This document shows, in pieces, positions 53,346 through 64,000 of a DNA stretch of 64,000 nucleotides. The notes under the pieces are model-generated. The model was not told the origin of the DNA and searched no databases. It saw only the letters and a list, made by a program, of their open reading frames with translations. Numbering within the stretch: position 1 is the first letter of the stretch; each line of letters begins with the position of its first letter. Source of the DNA: Flammeovirga pectinis (GTDB lineage: Bacteria; Bacteroidota; Bacteroidia; Cytophagales; Flammeovirgaceae); NCBI RefSeq assembly GCF_003970675.1, contig NZ_CP034562.1, positions 4,004,001-4,068,000 of the forward strand, in the 5' to 3' direction. A program made the position numbers and the translations under genes.

Positions 53346-55090
53346 GTTCTGATTCACTTTTGGTGGAAAGCTTTTTTAACATTTAGCATATAAGATATTA
53401 TTAATTTTGTTATTATGATATCACTCTCTACCTTTTCTAGTTTTGGTTCATTTGAATTTGATGGGTTCTCTGTTGATGAATCTAATACTGTAAAGAAAAG
53501 AATCATTCATTTGAAATCTATATCTCCTTCCGGAAAATGTCCTTGTTGTCATACAGAAAGTAATTCAAAACATAGCTATTATTTACGTAACCTCAAAGAT
53601 TTATCTTGGTCAGATTCTAGTGTTGAAGTTTCCTTAAAAGTAAAAAAATTCATTGTTCGAGGAAGATTTTTACTGAACGTTTTACTCAAGAAATACAACC
53701 TTATGCTCGTTCTACAACTAGATTACAACATCAATTAATGGTTTTAGGACTCACAATAGGTGTACGAGCATTACAACGAATATCATCACATCTACAATTA
53801 GAATATTCCACTTCATCTTTGTTGCGTTTTGCTCATTTGTTTCAAGTGAATGACAATAATAAACTCACTATTAATTGTTTAGGCATTTAAAAAACAAGTT
53901 TCCTATGATACTATTTTAGTGAATTTGGAAACTAAATAACCCATAGCTTTACTTCCTGATAGAAAAGTAGAGACCGTAAGTAAGTGGTTATTAGCACATC
54001 CTGAAATTAAAATAATTACCCGTGATGGGTCCAGTAGTTATGCATCAACAGCAACAAAAGGAGCTCCTCAAGCAGAACAAATAAGTGATAAATGGCATAT
54101 CAGCTGTAATTAGAAGCTATTTAGAAGGATATAAAAGTGATATTAGAACAGTTTGTGAAACTATTTCAGCAAATGGACACGAAAAATTGAAGTCTGCTCT
54201 TCTTTCTCAAAAGATTGAATTGCCTGAGACTAAATACTCTGCATTATTTAAAAAAGTCAAAGAACTACAAAAAGAAGGTAAATTATCACAAAGGAAGATT
54301 GCTAAGGAATTAGGTATGAATAGAGATGCAGTCGGAAGATATTTTAAGTTGGATGCTTATCCACGTAATTTTTCTGAGCCTATATATGAAAAAAATATAG
54401 CTCTTTTATTCGCAAACTTTGGAAAAATGGTGAACGAAGTGCTAAGGAGATATGGCGAAAAATAAAAGAAAAAGGATATTCAAGAGATTATCCTCATTTC
54501 TATAGATATGTTCAGTCCCATGTTAAAAAACCCATGTAGATATTCATCCATTAAAAATTAAATATAACACTATTAATCAGGTAAATAGATGTTTATTTCT
54601 TCATAGTAACGAAAGAACTATGGAAGAATCTACATTTATAAAATCACTTTGTGATAAAATTCCTCACTTAGAAAAATTGCGTAAACGCTATTTTGAATAC
54701 CGTAATATCTTCTTATCTAAGTTACCTGATAAATTACCAACTTGGTTAGCATCAGCTAAAGAATTGTCTATTGAAGGTCTAACTAGATTAGTTGGAGGAA
54801 TTGAAAGAGATATGGAAGCTGTTAAAAATGCTGCTATTTATAAATTAACAAATGGTCAAGTAGAAGGGCAAGTCAATAAATTAAAAATGATAAAACGTAA
54901 AGGGTATGGAAGGGCAAAATTACCCTTTTTAGAAAAACAGATGATGATATTAAATGAGTTATAAATGATAAAATAAAGCATCAAACCTGATCATAAAATT
55001 ACTTTTATACAGTGATTTTGTAGCGTAAAAATGAAGTGTTATTACCTCCTATAAATGTTAAAAAGCTTTCCACCAAAAGTGAATCAGAAC
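53346..55090. mobile_element. Decayed ISL3-family insertion sequence
   Basis: Bounded by near-perfect terminal inverted repeats: left 53346-53380 (GTTCTGATTCACTTTTGGTG...) and right 55057-55090 as its reverse complement, differing by one T in a T run. Inside is one transposase broken into several frames. No 8-bp target duplication is visible next to the ends (TTCACCCA on the left, CTCCTGTG on the right), so the junctions have changed since insertion. It forms the left border of the lanthipeptide cluster. Confidence 0.85.
53415..54964 (+). pseudogene. ISL3-family transposase, broken
   Basis: Recognisable pieces in order: the N-terminal zinc finger (CPCCHTESNSKHSYYLRNLKDLSW, 53415-53670), a frameshift near 53660 after KKFIVRG into FTERFTQEIQPYARSTTRLQ, a stop, then VNLETK with a stop and LLPDRKVETVSKWLLAHPEIKIITRDGSSSYA and GAPQAEQISDKWHI (the DDE catalytic region), a further break before the helical insert (KLSQRKIAKELGMNRDAVGRYF), and the C-terminal catalytic Glu region (NGQVEGQVNKLKMIKRKGYGRAKLPFLEKQMM, ending 54964). 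At least four disruptions, so it cannot make active transposase by itself. Confidence 0.88.
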
Positions 55091-55672: not shown

Positions 55673-55843
55673 ATGAAAAAGAAAATCAAATTAAACAAAG
55701 AGACACTAGTCTCTTTACAAGAAGATCAAATGAAATCTTCTTTTGGTGCTGAACAAAGTAATGATTCAGGTGCTGTGTGCGACAATGAAATAGGAGCTTT
55801 AGCAATCGCAGCTGATTCTTGCTGCAAAAAATCTTGTAACTAA
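55673..55843 (+). CDS. Class I lanthipeptide precursor (LanA-like)
   Basis: 56 residues, start ATG 55673, stop TAA 55841. The leader MKKKIKLNKETLVSLQEDQM has the KLNKET-x-x-x-L pattern of Bacteroidota class I lanthipeptide leaders, which LanB recognises. Met20, Leu15 and Gly25-Ala26 fit a double-glycine-type cleavage site (positions -7, -12, -2/-1) for a C39 protease, leaving a 30-residue core from Glu27. The core has four Ser (29, 32, 49, 54) and four Cys (36, 50, 51, 55), with an adjacent Cys-Cys, and no Thr, so up to four lanthionine rings are possible on paper. It lies 112 bp before the LanC gene and in the same cluster as a full LanB. Ring pattern and exact cleavage site are inference. 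Confidence 0.82.
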   Translation: MKKKIKLNKETLVSLQEDQMKSSFGAEQSNDSGAVCDNEIGALAIAADSCCKKSCN

Positions 55844-55954
55844 TAGTTTTTTAACTATGAATTTACAATAGATAATTTCTTTGTTATATAAAAAGTCTAT
55901 TTATCAGTCGTTTAGACTAGTTTAAACGACTGATATTCATATATTTAAATACTC

Positions 55955-57193
55955 ATGTCAATTTTAAATCAAAATATTAATACTCAGCTTGAAAAAATAT
56001 ATAGCACAATCGAGTCTTTATTGGTGACACTAAACACTAATATAAAAGCAGTAGAAAAATCAAAAGATATAAGTTTAGGAAATGGATTGTCAGCATTAAC
56101 CATTTGTAACTTTTATGCAGGAAGATATCTAAATGATTCCACATATATTGAGAAAGGTAATGAACTAGTGGAAATGATAATTGATATATTAAATGAGCAA
56201 AGTTTTTCCTTAAAAAATATGTTCTCTTATTTTAATGGTCTAACTGGAGTTTGCTATCTATTTAATCATTTACAAAAAAAGGATCTCATTGTATTTGATG
56301 TGCAAGAAAATTTATCTGCTATTGAAAATTATATTTTTGATTTAGGTTATAAATCAATAAAAGTAGGTAAAAGTGATTATTTACATGGTGGTTTAGGAAT
56401 TTTATATTATTTCTTAAAAAGAATTGAAAGTGAGATCAATGTAGAGCGTTGTAACAAGATAATTGATGCCTATTTTACAAAAGCTAAAATTGATGAACAG
56501 GGCCTTCGAATGATAAATACTGTGTTATTTGAGGCGGTTGAAGAAGAGTATAACTTAGGTTTAGCTCATGGTCTTGCTGGTCAACTTATCATATTAAGTC
56601 ACGCTTATGAGAAGGGACTAAAAAAGGAAAAAATACAATATATCATTGAGCAAGGGGTGAAATATATAGAAGGGAAGAAAAGAAAGTTAGAAAAAACGAA
56701 CGGTAACTCTTTATATGCAGTGAGTTTTATTGATATTTTACCTCCTGATGACCCTGCAAATTTAGAGTTTTATGATTCTCGATTAGCATAATGTTATGGA
56801 GATCTTAATTTTGCCGTGATGTACTTTAAGTTAGGGAAGATATTTAACAACCCCAATTATATAGAAAGAGCAACTGAGATTTCAACTAGAGTAGCTTATA
56901 TTAGAAATATAGAAACTGCTAAAATTGGAACTTCATTTTTCTGCCATGGATCTGCTGGAGTAGCTTATATCTTTAATAGTTTTTATAAAAAGACCAATAA
57001 GAACATTTTCTTTGAAGCGAGTGCTTATTGGTTATCATTTACATTGGAAAATATTGAAGAGCAAATCAAAATGCTTAAAACTAAGAATCAATCATGCCTT
57101 TTAGGAGGTGGAGGAGGTACTTTACTAAGCTTACTTTCATTCTTGAATAAAGATAGCACTGATAAATGGAATGAATTATTTATTCTAGATTAG
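55955..57193 (+). pseudogene. Lanthionine synthetase C (LanC), interrupted by an in-frame stop
   Basis: One continuous frame of about 412 codons broken only by TAA at 56789-56791. The first 278 residues contain the early LanC helices, YLHGGLGILYYF and LGLAHGLAGQLIIL. Directly after the stop comes [15 protein letters not shown], then [13 protein letters not shown] and [18 protein letters not shown] and CHG carry the zinc ligands. The stop stands where most LanC proteins have Trp (SRLAW-CYGD), so restarting at the nearby GTG/ATG would lose the first zinc Cys. LanC normally adds Cys thiols to dehydrated Ser/Thr to make (methyl)lanthionine. As written, no active single-chain LanC can be made without readthrough. 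A sequencing error would need two base changes from TGG. Confidence 0.88.
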
Positions 57194-57895: not shown

Positions 57896-58105
57896 ATGAA
57901 TTTTATTAAATCTAATAAGGATTTAAAGTCTGTTGCTAAGAAATCAATTCAGGCTGAAGAACTATTTGAAAAAAGAACAGTTGTAGAATTGTCTGATGAA
58001 GAATTATCAAATACAAAAGGAGGTACAAGTCCTTCTTGTATTGTTACTGTGTCAATACTTGTAACAACACTTATTCCAAATGATGCTTTTTCATCGAAAA
58101 ATTAA
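57896..58105 (+). CDS. Second RiPP precursor with a double-glycine leader
   Basis: 69 residues. The leader ends VVELSDEELSNTKGG (Gly42-Gly43), a textbook C39-protease site and of the ELSDEEL type more usual for class II lanthipeptides and microcins than for LanB substrates. The 26-residue core begins TSPSCIVTVSILVTTLIP and has ten Ser/Thr but a single Cys48, so at most one lanthionine ring could form and the rest could be dehydrated or left alone. The start of the core recalls beta chains of two-component lantibiotics, which normally have more Cys at the C terminus. No LanM is in the window. It may be a LanB substrate rich in Dha/Dhb, an unmodified bacteriocin, or a decayed precursor. Confidence 0.72.
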   Translation: MNFIKSNKDLKSVAKKSIQAEELFEKRTVVELSDEELSNTKGGTSPSCIVTVSILVTTLIPNDAFSSKN

Positions 58106-58227: not shown

Positions 58228-58788
58228 ATGAATAAAAAATTATATTTTTTTCTAATATCTAGTTGGATTATAATATCAAGAATACTTGATGTATACTATA
58301 CATATCAATTCACTCCTGATTTATCAAAAGAGGCAAATCCAATAGTTTCTATTTTTGGAATTTCTTCATGGTCTATTTTATCATTCATAATTACTGTAGT
58401 TGTAATTTATGTAATATACACATTCTATTTAGTGATTTTTAAACCCTTTGATTTACTACCCAATGAAAAAGGATATTCTTATAGTAATATTATAGCGTAT
58501 TTATTTTTAGGGGTTAAAGAAAGTTGGTTATCTGTGTTCTATAAATTCCCCAAAAGTTACAAAAGAATGAAGTATTATATAGGACATATTTTACCAGTAT
58601 CGTTTGCATATGTAGGATTAATTACAACTATAATGTGGTTATTAATAAATAATACAGAGTCATTTTATACTGAATATTATCGTTTGAAATATGTCTTGGT
58701 TATTATTTTACTACCTATTGTTAGTTTTATCTTTGTTTGGACTTATTTGATGTATAAAAAATATCTAAATAAATTACGAATTAACTAA
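58228..58788 (+). CDS. Four-span membrane protein, candidate immunity factor
   Basis: 186 residues, about four to five membrane helices (approximately 5-25, 47-75, 122-143, 155-177) and basic loops. A conserved-looking stretch after helix 1, SRILDVYYTYQFTPDLSKEANPI, resembles the D...T...E-x-NP pattern of DUF5658-like small membrane proteins; no function is known for those. I do not recognise a firm family. It lies between the second precursor and the tailoring genes, where a self-protection protein is often found, and the composition is as AT-rich as the rest of the cluster. Immunity is a guess from position and topology. Confidence 0.6.
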   Translation: MNKKLYFFLISSWIIISRILDVYYTYQFTPDLSKEANPIVSIFGISSWSILSFIITVVVIYVIYTFYLVIFKPFDLLPNEKGYSYSNIIAYLFLGVKESWLSVFYKFPKSYKRMKYYIGHILPVSFAYVGLITTIMWLLINNTESFYTEYYRLKYVLVIILLPIVSFIFVWTYLMYKKYLNKLRIN

Positions 58789-59324: not shown

Positions 59325-60413
59325 ATGAAACAATTAGTTATTTGTCCAAATAATTTCCACAAACATTACGAAGATACTTTTTCTTATGGAAAACTGAAAT
59401 TTAATGGTAAGGATATTAATTACGCACTTATTGAAACCGAAGATACATATTTCAATCCTAATGAACACGTAGATAAGGTTTTAATTCGTAAAAAAGCATT
59501 TTCATGTAATTATAGAGATTTATCAATATTATTATTGCAATCTGAAAGAATTAATAATAACTCTCAAATTGCATATACCCCTTTTGGTTCTGAGTTTTCA
59601 GGTATTATTGAAGACATAGGAAATAATGTAGTTAATTTTAAAGTAGGAGATAGAGTAATATGTAATGGTTCATATGATATAAATAATAATGAATTTGGAT
59701 TACCTTCTAATGGAACCTCGAAAGAGTTGGAAATTATTGATATAGGAAATATTATACATATGCCTAGTAAAATGTCATATGCAGTAGGGGCGGGTTTTAC
59801 TATAGGAGCACAAACAGTATACTCAATGATTAATAAGTTAAAGTTAGAAAAAAAAGCGAAAGTATTACTTACTGGTATTCGTGCTAATACATCGTTATTT
59901 GCATTATCGGCTTTAAAAAAAAATAATATAGATGTTTATGGTTTAACTCGTTCAAAAATAAATGAATCATTGTTTAAAAAACATGGGATGAAAGAAATTT
60001 TTAATTTCAAAGAAGAAGAAGGTTTTTTAAGTAATCCAAGTTTATACGAGCTAATTAAGAAAACAGGGGGGTTTGATGCGATAATTGATCCTTTTACTGA
60101 TAGCTATTTTTTTGATGCTTTGAAAGCTTTAAAATTTAATGGTAAATATATTACTTGTGGACTTTCAAATCAATTCGATTATGACTATAAAAAAATATCT
60201 TTAAACACAGAACTTGCTGCCTTAATTCTCAAAAACTTGAAAATTATAGGAAATTGTCTTGGTAAGACAGAGGATTTGAGGGAAGCATTAGATGATTTTC
60301 AAAAAGGGAATTTGTATGTATTTATTGATTCAATAACAAATGATCCTATTGAATTTATGAATCAATCGTTTATCAATAAAAATAGATTGGGGAAAGTAAT
60401 TTTTGAGTACTAA
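59325..60413 (+). CDS. MDR-family dehydrogenase, possible LanJ-type dehydroalanine reductase
   Basis: 362 residues of the medium-chain dehydrogenase/reductase superfamily: catalytic domain with SCNYRDLSILL, FGSEFSGIIEDIGNNVVNFKVGDRVIC, then a Rossmann part (KVLLTGIRANTSLFALSALKKNNIDVYGLTRS) whose coenzyme loop is TGIRANTS instead of the usual GxGxxG. It is 15 bp before LanB and so co-expressed with it. Zinc-dependent MDR enzymes of the LtnJ (LanJA) type reduce dehydroalanine in lanthipeptides to D-alanine; that is the natural hypothesis here. The structural-zinc four-Cys loop of typical alcohol dehydrogenases is not visible, which favours the quinone-oxidoreductase-like or LanJA branch. Confidence 0.75.
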   Translation: MKQLVICPNNFHKHYEDTFSYGKLKFNGKDINYALIETEDTYFNPNEHVDKVLIRKKAFSCNYRDLSILLLQSERINNNSQIAYTPFGSEFSGIIEDIGNNVVNFKVGDRVICNGSYDINNNEFGLPSNGTSKELEIIDIGNIIHMPSKMSYAVGAGFTIGAQTVYSMINKLKLEKKAKVLLTGIRANTSLFALSALKKNNIDVYGLTRSKINESLFKKHGMKEIFNFKEEEGFLSNPSLYELIKKTGGFDAIIDPFTDSYFFDALKALKFNGKYITCGLSNQFDYDYKKISLNTELAALILKNLKIIGNCLGKTEDLREALDDFQKGNLYVFIDSITNDPIEFMNQSFINKNRLGKVIFEY

Positions 60414-60428
60414 AATAAAAAATGTATT

Positions 60429-63400
60429 ATGACTACTAAATATCAAATTAATGACGATATAATAATTCGCACTCCTATTTTTCCTTTTAATAGAGTCAGT
60501 AATGACGCAGAACTTCTAAAATTTATTGAGAATAACTTTTTCTTAGAAGCAATTTACATTGCATCTCCAATATTATATGAAGAAATTGTGAAATTAAAAA
60601 AAGGTATACTGAATGAAACAAAAAGAGATCAAGTTTTGAATAGTTTATATAGGTATGCTATAAGAATGAATTCAAGAAGTACACCCTTTGGTCTATTTTC
60701 TACAGTATCAATTGCTAACTGGAGTAAGGAAACTTTAACACCATTTTTGCCAAATAATTTTTATAGACATACAAGAATTGACATGAATTTATTAGTTGTC
60801 TTAGTTGAGGAACTTGAAAAAGTTCCAGAAATTAGAGAACAATTAATTTATTACCCCAATAATAGTATTTATGAGAAAAATAATGAATTTCGATATATTG
60901 AATATCATTATAATTCAGATAATATAAAGAAGTTTAAGATGTCAAGTGTAGCTATTAATAGTTATTTACATGAAATATATTGTTTAGCAAAGGGGGGGAT
61001 AACTATAACAAAATTAGCAGAAAGGATTACTGATGATAATTTAACAATAGATGTTGCTAATGATTTGATTGCATTAATGATTGAATCTCAAGTCCTAGTT
61101 TCTGAGTTTATTCCACGCTTGACATCTAATGATACGTATTTAAATCAGGTTATTAATATAGTAGAACAAATAACAAAAAAATCTGATAGCCTCAATGTTG
61201 AATTAGTACTTCAAAAGTTAAAGAAAATTCAAGAAAAACTTAATATATTAGATTTACACCCCGAAAATTCAGTTGATATTTATAAAAATATTATTAATGA
61301 TTTATATGAATTTATACCCAAAATAGATCATAGTAAAGTGTTTCATGTAGATGGATTTCGTAAGAGTGTTTCAAGTGTATTATCTTCATATAAGAGTAAA
61401 ATATCAGAGATAATAAATGTGATTTTAGCAATAAATAAAAATTCTGTAAAAACTAATAAAAATATAGAAAATTTCAGATATAAATTTATTGAGCGATATG
61501 ATAGTCAGGCAATACCACTTGTTGATGCTTTAGATGAGGACTTTGGAATAGGTTACCCTATAAATGTATTATCTCGAACAAACACTTTAATTGAAAAATT
61601 ACACTTTAATGGAGAAAAACAAAGGACTATTGATATTAATTTAAATGTAAGAGAAAAATGGTTGTTAGATGTACTTAATGTCATAGAAAGTAAAGGGAGT
61701 GATCAAATTAATTTAGAAGATTATATAAAGGAATCAGATCTCAAGCAAATCAATACTTATGATATGCCACCCTCTTTTTGTTTTATGTTTCGTCTTTTTA
61801 ATGATAATATTTTATTTGAATCTACTTTTGGTACTTCAGCAGCTTCAATGATGAGTCGTTTTAGTTATGGTAATCAGGATGTCAAAAGAGCTACTCATCA
61901 AATTGTTGAAAAAGAAGAAAAGTTATTAAAGGAGGGTGCTATTATGGTAGATATTGTTCATATGCCTGATAATAGAATGGCAAATGTTATAGCTCATCCA
62001 TTATTTAGAAAGTATGAAATGCCTTATTTAGGAGGAGGGGCTGTTAACAATCAAAATACTATAAATATTGAGGATATTTTTATTAAGGTAATAAATAATA
62101 AAATAGTTTTATTCTCAAAAAAACTTAATAAAATAATTATACCAACTAAAACGAATGTACATAATCATTTTAATATGTCGTTACCTTTATATCAATTTTG
62201 GGGTGATTTATCTTCGGATTACTTTAACAAAGATATAGAGTTTCATTGGGGAAATATAAATGCTATGAGGACTTATTTACCAAGGGTTTTATTTAAAGGA
62301 TCTATAATAATGCCTGCAACTTGGAATTTAAGAACCGAAGAATTAATAAATTTATCAAAACTAAATGATGATGAATTGTTGATTAAAATAAATGGCTTAC
62401 AAAAAACATTAAATTTACCACAACGTATATTATTTTCAGAATTTGATAATGAACTTGTTGTTGATTTTTCAGATATAAGATCAATACGAATATGGTTACA
62501 CCTTGTAAAACATAAACAGATTATTACTGTAAAGGAGTTTCTATGGGGTAATAAAGGGGAGTTTTTAAATCAATATGTAGCTAATATATCTAGCCAAGAA
62601 ATAAAAGATTATTCATTTTGTTTAAATGAATTTGAAAGTAGTATAGGAACTTCTCAAGTAATTCAAAGAGATTATTCTCCTGGTGATAAATGGTTATACT
62701 ATAAAATTTATTGTAATATGATATCTTTTGATGAAGTTCTAATTGATATTATATCACCATTATTAACTTCCTTTATCAAGAAAGGTTATATTAAAAGTTT
62801 CTTTTTTATAAAGTACTATGATACAGACTATCATATTCGCCTTCGACTAGAGTTAATAGATAACTCATTTTATGGCGAAATGATTGAATTATTTCATAAT
62901 GAACTTCAAAAGTCGACAAAAAAATCGTTAATTCATGATTTACAAATAGCGACTTATCAAAGAGAAGTTGAAAGATATGGTTCCATTTCAATGGAAATTT
63001 GTGAAAATTATTTTTACATAGATAGCTTTTTTTGTATTCACTTACTAAAAAAATTAGAAAAAATAAAAAAAAATAAGCTTAAAAGTCTTGTAGGTTTAGT
63101 ATTAATTAATAAAACATTAGAAGGATTCAAGTTTACTTTAGATGATAAAATTAATTATGTTAATACAGCTAAAACTCGATATCAAACGGAATTTAATGTA
63201 GATAAAAATACCTTTTCTTCATTGAATCAAAATTATAGAAAAGATAAAGATCTTGTATTTGAGGTATTAAGTGAAAATTTCGCAATAAACCAATTAGATA
63301 ATATTATTGATCAAAAAGAAATTAAGTTACAGCCAATAATAGATTCTCTATTGAATCTAGAAAAAAATAATAAATTGGAGGTTAGTAAATTTCAACTAAT

Positions 63401-63539
63401 TTCTAGTCTTATTCATATGACTTTAAATAGATTTATATCTCAAGATGAAAGAATACAAGAATATATTTTATATGAATATCTTTTTAAGTATTATAAGTAT
63501 CAAAAACATTGTTTAGAAAATAAACTTGAAGCTATATAA
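60429..63539 (+). CDS. lanB: Lantibiotic dehydratase LanB, full length
   Basis: 1036 residues, the size of a complete class I LanB with both halves fused. N-terminal glutamylation domain: IIIRTPIFPFN and the hallmark RSTPFGLFSTVS at 83-93. C-terminal elimination domain (SpaB_C/thiopeptide type): GDKWLYYKIYC and FFFIKYYDTDYHIRLRL from about residue 755 on. It activates precursor Ser/Thr with glutamyl-tRNA and removes glutamate to give Dha/Dhb. No stop or frameshift was seen, in contrast to LanC in the same cluster. In pinensin-type Bacteroidota clusters LanB is, as I recall, split in two; here it is one chain. The C39 exporter gene starts 108 bp later. Confidence 0.95.
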   Translation: MTTKYQINDDIIIRTPIFPFNRVSNDAELLKFIENNFFLEAIYIASPILYEEIVKLKKGILNETKRDQVLNSLYRYAIRMNSRSTPFGLFSTVSIANWSKETLTPFLPNNFYRHTRIDMNLLVVLVEELEKVPEIREQLIYYPNNSIYEKNNEFRYIEYHYNSDNIKKFKMSSVAINSYLHEIYCLAKGGITITKLAERITDDNLTIDVANDLIALMIESQVLVSEFIPRLTSNDTYLNQVINIVEQITKKSDSLNVELVLQKLKKIQEKLNILDLHPENSVDIYKNIINDLYEFIPKIDHSKVFHVDGFRKSVSSVLSSYKSKISEIINVILAINKNSVKTNKNIENFRYKFIERYDSQAIPLVDALDEDFGIGYPINVLSRTNTLIEKLHFNGEKQRTIDINLNVREKWLLDVLNVIESKGSDQINLEDYIKESDLKQINTYDMPPSFCFMFRLFNDNILFESTFGTSAASMMSRFSYGNQDVKRATHQIVEKEEKLLKEGAIMVDIVHMPDNRMANVIAHPLFRKYEMPYLGGGAVNNQNTINIEDIFIKVINNKIVLFSKKLNKIIIPTKTNVHNHFNMSLPLYQFWGDLSSDYFNKDIEFHWGNINAMRTYLPRVLFKGSIIMPATWNLRTEELINLSKLNDDELLIKINGLQKTLNLPQRILFSEFDNELVVDFSDIRSIRIWLHLVKHKQIITVKEFLWGNKGEFLNQYVANISSQEIKDYSFCLNEFESSIGTSQVIQRDYSPGDKWLYYKIYCNMISFDEVLIDIISPLLTSFIKKGYIKSFFFIKYYDTDYHIRLRLELIDNSFYGEMIELFHNELQKSTKKSLIHDLQIATYQREVERYGSISMEICENYFYIDSFFCIHLLKKLEKIKKNKLKSLVGLVLINKTLEGFKFTLDDKINYVNTAKTRYQTEFNVDKNTFSSLNQNYRKDKDLVFEVLSENFAINQLDNIIDQKEIKLQPIIDSLLNLEKNNKLEVSKFQLISSLIHMTLNRFISQDERIQEYILYEYLFKYYKYQKHCLENKLEAI

Positions 63540-63647: not shown

Positions 63648-64000
63648 ATGTTAAAGAGATTTCCATTTTTTAAACAATTAGACGCAATGGACTGTGGTCC
63701 TGCATCTCTTAAAATAATATCAAAGTATTATGGTAAAAATTTTTCAATGAAATATTTGAGAGATAAATGTAACATAACTAGAGAAGGAGTTTCATTGTTG
63801 TCAATAAGTAAAACCTCAGAAAGTTTAGGGTTTAAAACTCTTGGATTAAAAACTACTTTTGAAGATTTAAAAGATAAATTACTTTTACCTTGTATTATTC
63901 ATTGGGAATACAAACATTTTGTCGTTGTTTATAAAATAACATTAAAAAAAATTTATATTTCAGACCCACAATTAGGATTAGTTACCTACAATATTAAAGA
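63648..64000 (+). CDS. C39 peptidase-containing ABC exporter, 3' end missing
   Basis: Starts at ATG 63648 and runs off the window after about 117 residues. All visible sequence is a C39 bacteriocin-processing peptidase: Gln10 and Cys16 in KQLDAMDCGPASLKIISKYYG, the catalytic His90 in HWEYKHFVVVY, and Asp106 in ISDPQLG. In the full protein membrane helices and an ATPase would follow. Such exporters cut double-glycine leaders while secreting the peptide, which fits the GA and GG sites of the two precursors at 55673 and 57896. Confidence 0.88.
   Translation, partial: MLKRFPFFKQLDAMDCGPASLKIISKYYGKNFSMKYLRDKCNITREGVSLLSISKTSESLGFKTLGLKTTFEDLKDKLLLPCIIHWEYKHFVVVYKITLKKIYISDPQLGLVTYNIK

What the first reader, a model, noticed from the sequence alone, without database searches (positions are those of the whole stretch)
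55673..55843. Overlooked 56-residue lanthipeptide precursor with four Ser and four Cys in the core
The leader KLNKETLVSL...QM fits the Bacteroidota class I pattern, and GA at 25-26 with Leu at -12 and Met at -7 fits C39 cleavage. The predicted core has equal Ser and Cys numbers, an adjacent Cys pair near the end, and no Thr: only lanthionine, no methyllanthionine, would be expected.
Basis: partly seen in the sequence, partly recalled or inferred. Interest (0 to 1): 0.75.

Follow-up and report, generated by a model that had tools for sequence, protein, structure and literature searches.

The report
Lanthipeptide precursor in decaying gene cluster
The short gene really does encode the precursor of a ring-forming bacterial peptide (a class I lanthipeptide), but it sits in a decaying cluster whose ring-closing enzyme has a premature stop, so this strain probably no longer makes the finished peptide.

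Summary
The 56-codon ORF at 55673-55843 is there exactly as described and is a genuine class I lanthipeptide precursor of the Bacteroidota kind. It passes the NCBIfam lant_leader_L1a cut-off (26.1 vs 22 bits). Leader and core each match, independently, precursors in Xanthocytophaga and an unnamed order-mate; Spirosoma and Emticicia carry similar ones. All share a Cys...SCCxx[ST]C core, and in all but Spirosoma, whose locus ends beside the precursor, a LanB gene lies nearby.

The expected product is doubtful. Directly downstream, lanC has an in-frame TAA at the Trp codon of the WCYG zinc-site motif; a congener's 97%-identical copy reads TGG. The next gene, a luciferase-like monooxygenase, is cut to about a third. 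The genome's two other LanC-like proteins lack the zinc ligands. Its only LanB groups with a different lineage, whose closest member sits beside precursors like the second precursor here (57896-58105). The congener has lost the lanA segment (294 bp in the window) and all LanB.

Best reading: an ordinary, previously catalogued type of lanthipeptide gene, now an orphan or relic in an IS-bounded, strain-specific island. New member of a known kind; the decay is the main result. Expression was not testable.

The parts
53346..55090 (.). Insertion sequence with 31-bp perfect terminal inverted repeats and a broken transposase reading frame; lies directly upstream of the precursor
   Evidence: Inverted arms 53346-53376 / 55060-55090, 100% complementary; transposase-like coding split over several short ORFs; transposase identity is inferred, no family search was run on it
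55673..55843 (+). lanA: 56-aa class I lanthipeptide precursor; leader 1-26 ending GA, core 27-56 with Cys...SCCKKSCN
   Evidence: NF038153 above cut-off; family alignment; core and leader each match without the other
55902..55935 (+). Strong RNA hairpin (15-bp stem) between lanA and lanC; possible partial terminator or processing site
   Evidence: Inverted repeat; folding of 55840-55954 z = -4.23, no shuffle as stable. Function inferred.
55955..57193 (+). lanC cyclase gene, interrupted by an in-frame TAA at 56789-56791 at the Trp of the WCYG motif
   Evidence: PF05147 in both pieces; one TAA inside; alignment; congener has TGG at that codon
57356..57680 (+). Luciferase-like monooxygenase remnant: N-terminal third only, with a further in-frame TAA
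   Evidence: TIGR03558/PF00296 N-terminus only; about 49% identical to the first ~100 aa of the X. flava protein, rest absent; TAA versus GAA in congener
57896..58105 (+). Second precursor (69 aa) of a different type: leader ELSDEELSNTKGG, core TSPSCIVTVSILVTTLIPNDAFSSKN
   Evidence: NF038153 17.5 bits, below cut-off; relatives beside the closest LanB in G672
58228..58788 (+). Predicted membrane protein, no family
   Evidence: No NCBIfam hit and no Pfam hit over cut-off; 186-aa hydrophobic ORF
59325..60413 (+). Zinc-type dehydrogenase family protein (possible reductase of dehydrated residues, LanJA-like; inferred)
   Evidence: PF08240, PF00107
60429..63539 (+). LanB dehydratase, full length, the only LanB in the genome; of another lineage than the LanBs of this precursor family
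   Evidence: PF04738 and PF14028 over full length; only match in genome; quick tree
63648..64000 (+). Start of the C39 peptidase/ABC exporter (728 aa; continues beyond the window in L009), followed there by HlyD and outer-membrane efflux genes
   Evidence: PF03412, PF00664, PF00005, PF13437, PF02321

Best explanation
The ORF is a true class I lanthipeptide precursor (LanA) of a Cytophagales subfamily with a Cys...SCCxx[ST]C core. In intact relatives the LanB dehydrates core Ser/Thr, the LanC closes lanthionines onto the Cys residues, a luciferase-like monooxygenase probably tailors the peptide, and a C39 transporter cuts after GG/GA and exports it (steps inferred from the families). In this genome the pathway is breaking down: lanC is stopped at its zinc site, the monooxygenase is truncated, and the neighbouring LanB-dehydrogenase-exporter operon is of another lineage and probably serves the second precursor. 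The lanA is thus most likely an orphan or relic gene on a strain-specific, IS-bounded island.
For: Precursor identity. Relatives with the same core and the cluster LanC-like, LanC, monooxygenase, exporter, LanB: X. flava and G659; Emticicia aquatilis and Spirosoma spitsbergense, where the Spirosoma locus ends at the precursor (no LanB visible) and the Emticicia exporter reads only as a partial match at the locus end. LanC broken at WCYG; codon 279 TAA here, TGG in the congener copy. The two other LanC-like proteins have no CYG or CHG. Single LanB, grouping with G672 (support 100) away from the LanBs of X. flava, G659 and Emticicia; G672's has precursors like the second one here and no LanC in the 20 kb read. 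Congener G006 keeps LanC, the monooxygenase fragment and second precursor at 97% but lacks the window segment 55568-55861 with lanA, and everything right of 59008; no LanB there. dN/dS 0.71 (LanC) and 1.06 (monooxygenase fragment), few changes. Island absent at the matching place in G006.
Against: lanA itself is an intact frame, as are LanB, exporter and HlyD, so the operon could still be expressed. The LanB tree is a quick single-gene tree with long branches, so LanB lineage does not prove substrate. The LanC placement is only weakly supported (85). The stop rests on one assembly. Few substitutions underlie the dN/dS values. GC is low throughout the island and does not separate the modules cleanly.
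Confidence: 0.75

Rival explanations
1. A working cluster: the window's LanB dehydrates both precursors and the LanC works despite the TAA (read-through, sequencing error, or two pieces complementing), giving a four-Ser/four-Cys lanthipeptide.
For: lanA, LanB and exporter frames are intact; C39 domain fits the GA leader end; hairpin between lanA and lanC resembles an expression-balancing element.
Against: TAA at the WCYG Trp; the C-terminal piece's first listed start (GTG 56816) lies after the CYG cysteine; monooxygenase truncated, in the congener too; LanB lineage mismatch; congener lost lanA and LanB.
Confidence: 0.15
2. Ring-free dehydrated or dehydrogenase-reduced peptide: the window's LanB dehydrates LanA and, with no LanC, the zinc-type dehydrogenase reduces Dha to D-Ala or rings close non-enzymatically.
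For: LanB and dehydrogenase intact, LanC broken; dehydrogenases of this family are known as LanJA in other lanthipeptide clusters (PMC7268733).
Against: The LanB's nearest relative goes with ELSxxE-type leaders, not LxLxK leaders; no test of LanA as its substrate.
Confidence: 0.07
3. Chance ORF with a lanthipeptide-like look.
For: Short ORF in AT-rich DNA; no convincing promoter match above chance.
Against: Independent leader and core matches to relatives, NF038153 above cut-off, position directly before lanC.
Confidence: 0.01

Closest known systems
Bacteroidota class I LanA with LxLxKx5L leader and GG end (Walker et al. 2020, PMC7268733; NCBIfam NF038153 lant_leader_L1a)
   Same: Leader motif (I for the first L), G[G/A] end, nearby C39 transporter, LanB and LanC, Cys-rich core
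   Different: GA instead of GG; lanC interrupted; LanB of another lineage
SCCxx[ST]C precursors of Xanthocytophaga flava (L010) and an unnamed Cytophagales genome (L045); similar ones in Spirosoma spitsbergense (L102) and Emticicia aquatilis (L104)
   Same: Core ends SCCxx[ST]C; upstream Cys; adjoining LanC and luciferase-like monooxygenase
   Different: Those have several precursors, a second zinc-ligand-less LanC partner, an intact monooxygenase, LanBs of another clade (none visible in L102), and usually an [ST]xSC motif where the window has SGAVC
LanB cluster of G672 (L093)
   Same: LanB 39% identical; precursors like the window's second precursor
   Different: No LanC in the stretch read and no SCC-type precursor
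Pinensins (Bacteroidota class I lanthipeptides, antifungal)
   Same: Phylum and class
   Different: Different core by recollection; known here only from PMC7268733, not compared by sequence

Membership tests
Class I lanthipeptide precursor (LanA), Bacteroidota type | Leader matching NF038153 above its curated cut-off | tested here: met
   26.1 bits versus 22
Class I lanthipeptide precursor (LanA), Bacteroidota type | LxLxKx5L leader motif and double-glycine-type end | tested here: met
   I5-K-L7-N-K9-x5-L15, ending G25-A26 (Ile for first Leu, GA for GG) (motif from PMC7268733)
Class I lanthipeptide precursor (LanA), Bacteroidota type | LanB and LanC genes in the neighbourhood | tested here: met
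   LanB 60429-63539 and lanC 55955-57193, the latter interrupted
Class I lanthipeptide precursor (LanA), Bacteroidota type | Ser/Thr and Cys in the core, conserved in homologues | tested here: met
   C36, S49, C50, C51, C55 positions shared
Functional class I lanthipeptide cluster | Intact LanC with Cys, Cys-His zinc ligands | tested here: not met
   TAA before CYG; other LanC-like proteins lack ligands
Functional class I lanthipeptide cluster | Lanthionine-containing product | not testable with these tools
   Needs mass spectrometry
C39-processed peptide | GG/GA with hydrophobic -4, -7, -12 positions | tested here: inconclusive
   Leu at -12 and Met at -7 present; -4 is Ser where relatives have Leu or other residues

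The most novel reading that the evidence does not exclude
A composite locus in which a LanB-dehydrogenase operon of a LanC-poor lineage has taken over an orphaned lanthipeptide precursor, making a ring-free dehydrated or reduced peptide.
Probability: 0.05. Interest if true: 0.6.

Novelty: new member of a known kind. Interest (0 to 1): 0.3.

Why it matters
It adds one member to a small Cytophagales lanthipeptide family and shows that genome-mining hits of this sort need the state of their enzymes checked: two congeners have broken the same cluster in different ways. The intact relatives (Xanthocytophaga, Spirosoma, Emticicia) are the better targets for isolating the product.

Tried and rejected
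A first scan of genome contigs with the single protein found no relatives; the family alignment did. A phylum-wide single-sequence search of 296 genomes found only the window. Sigma-70 scan uninformative: 20 found, 22.9 expected by chance. Target-site duplication of the left IS: none seen by eye in the flanks. PDB comparison of the dehydrogenase gave only general quinone-oxidoreductase/alcohol-dehydrogenase relatives. Papers on lanthipeptides in Flammeovirga (a guess at the genus): three hits, not read further. Chance ORF was rejected. A structure prediction was not run, since a 56-aa precursor is not expected to fold informatively.

Full report
Observation. It passes the curated cut-off of NCBIfam NF038153, class I lanthipeptide leader, and is the only match over that cut-off in the genome.

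Relatives. A single-sequence search found weak full-length matches in tandem in G040, which is Xanthocytophaga flava by identical match and contig length. A profile search of 390 order-mates and a scan of named genomes added six precursors in G659 and similar ones in Spirosoma spitsbergense and Emticicia aquatilis. They share the leader and a core of the form C...SCCxx[ST]C (for X. flava and G659; the other two read by eye). An HMM made without the window sequence recognises the window's core and leader separately. The window's order is thus Cytophagales; its genus is not named by the tools.

Clusters. In X. flava and G659 the precursors lie with a LanC-like protein lacking the CHG motif, a LanC with WCYG and CHG, a luciferase-like monooxygenase, a C39 exporter and a LanB. 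Emticicia aquatilis (L104) has the same set, though its exporter is seen only as a partial match at the end of the locus. The Spirosoma locus (L102) has both LanC proteins, monooxygenase and exporter, but ends at the precursor, so no LanB is visible there.

State of the window's cluster. lanC carries an in-frame TAA exactly at the Trp of WCYG. The monooxygenase keeps only its N-terminal third. The genome's other two LanC-like proteins lack both zinc motifs. There is one LanB; in a quick tree it joins G672 with support 100, apart from the clade holding the X. flava, G659 and Emticicia LanBs. The Spirosoma locus contributed no LanB to that tree. G672's LanB lies with precursors like the window's second precursor and no LanC in the stretch read; the only LanC-like match in G672 lies on another contig, near its other LanB.

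Congener. G006 carries a 97%-identical copy of lanC through the membrane-protein gene on another contig. Its lanC is open, with TGG where the window has TAA. The window segment 55568-55861, which contains lanA, is missing there, and so is everything right of 59008; no LanB was found in G006. At the place matching the window, G006 lacks the region from about 53.3 to 69.4 kb, which is bounded by an IS on the left and a DDE transposase gene on the right. Substitutions between the two lanC copies are 5 synonymous and 13 non-synonymous (dN/dS 0.71), and 3 and 11 in the monooxygenase fragment (1.06); the numbers are small.

Known literature. Walker et al. 2020 (PMC7268733) already describe Bacteroidetes class I LanAs with an LxLxKx5L leader, GG ends and nearby C39 proteases, so the kind is known. 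Bacteroidota class I LanAs have been modified in E. coli with their own LanB and LanC (PMC9993889), which makes the co-expression test feasible.

Conclusion. The precursor is real and of a known kind; the working pathway is not supported in this strain. Shown: identity, homologues, broken lanC, truncated monooxygenase, single LanB. Inferred: that LanB serves the second precursor, that lanA is an orphan or relic, and that the hairpin after lanA regulates expression.

Noticed in passing
L010 2134-3546, L045 16399-17628, L102 3635-4834, L104 6509-7732: The lanthipeptide clusters of this family carry a second LanC-like protein that has CYG (with Leu for Trp) but no CHG zinc motif; such proteins form a separate clade in the quick tree, suggesting a conserved partner of LanC that has lost a zinc ligand.
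   Followed up: partly
window 57896-58105; L093 6887-7123 and 7256-7462: Second precursor type (GGT[ST]PxC) beside a LanB lineage that in G672 has no LanC in the 20 kb read; possibly a LanC-independent LanB system.
   Followed up: partly
L013, L014 (G000 C2 and C3): Two 520-600-aa LanC-like proteins without zinc ligands elsewhere in the genome; the C3 one has a 51-aa GG-containing peptide ORF upstream.
   Followed up: partly
L009 8703-9389 (window about 68703-69389): DDE_Tnp_IS240-type transposase abuts the 3' end of the outer-membrane efflux gene, near the right edge of the island absent from G006.
   Followed up: partly
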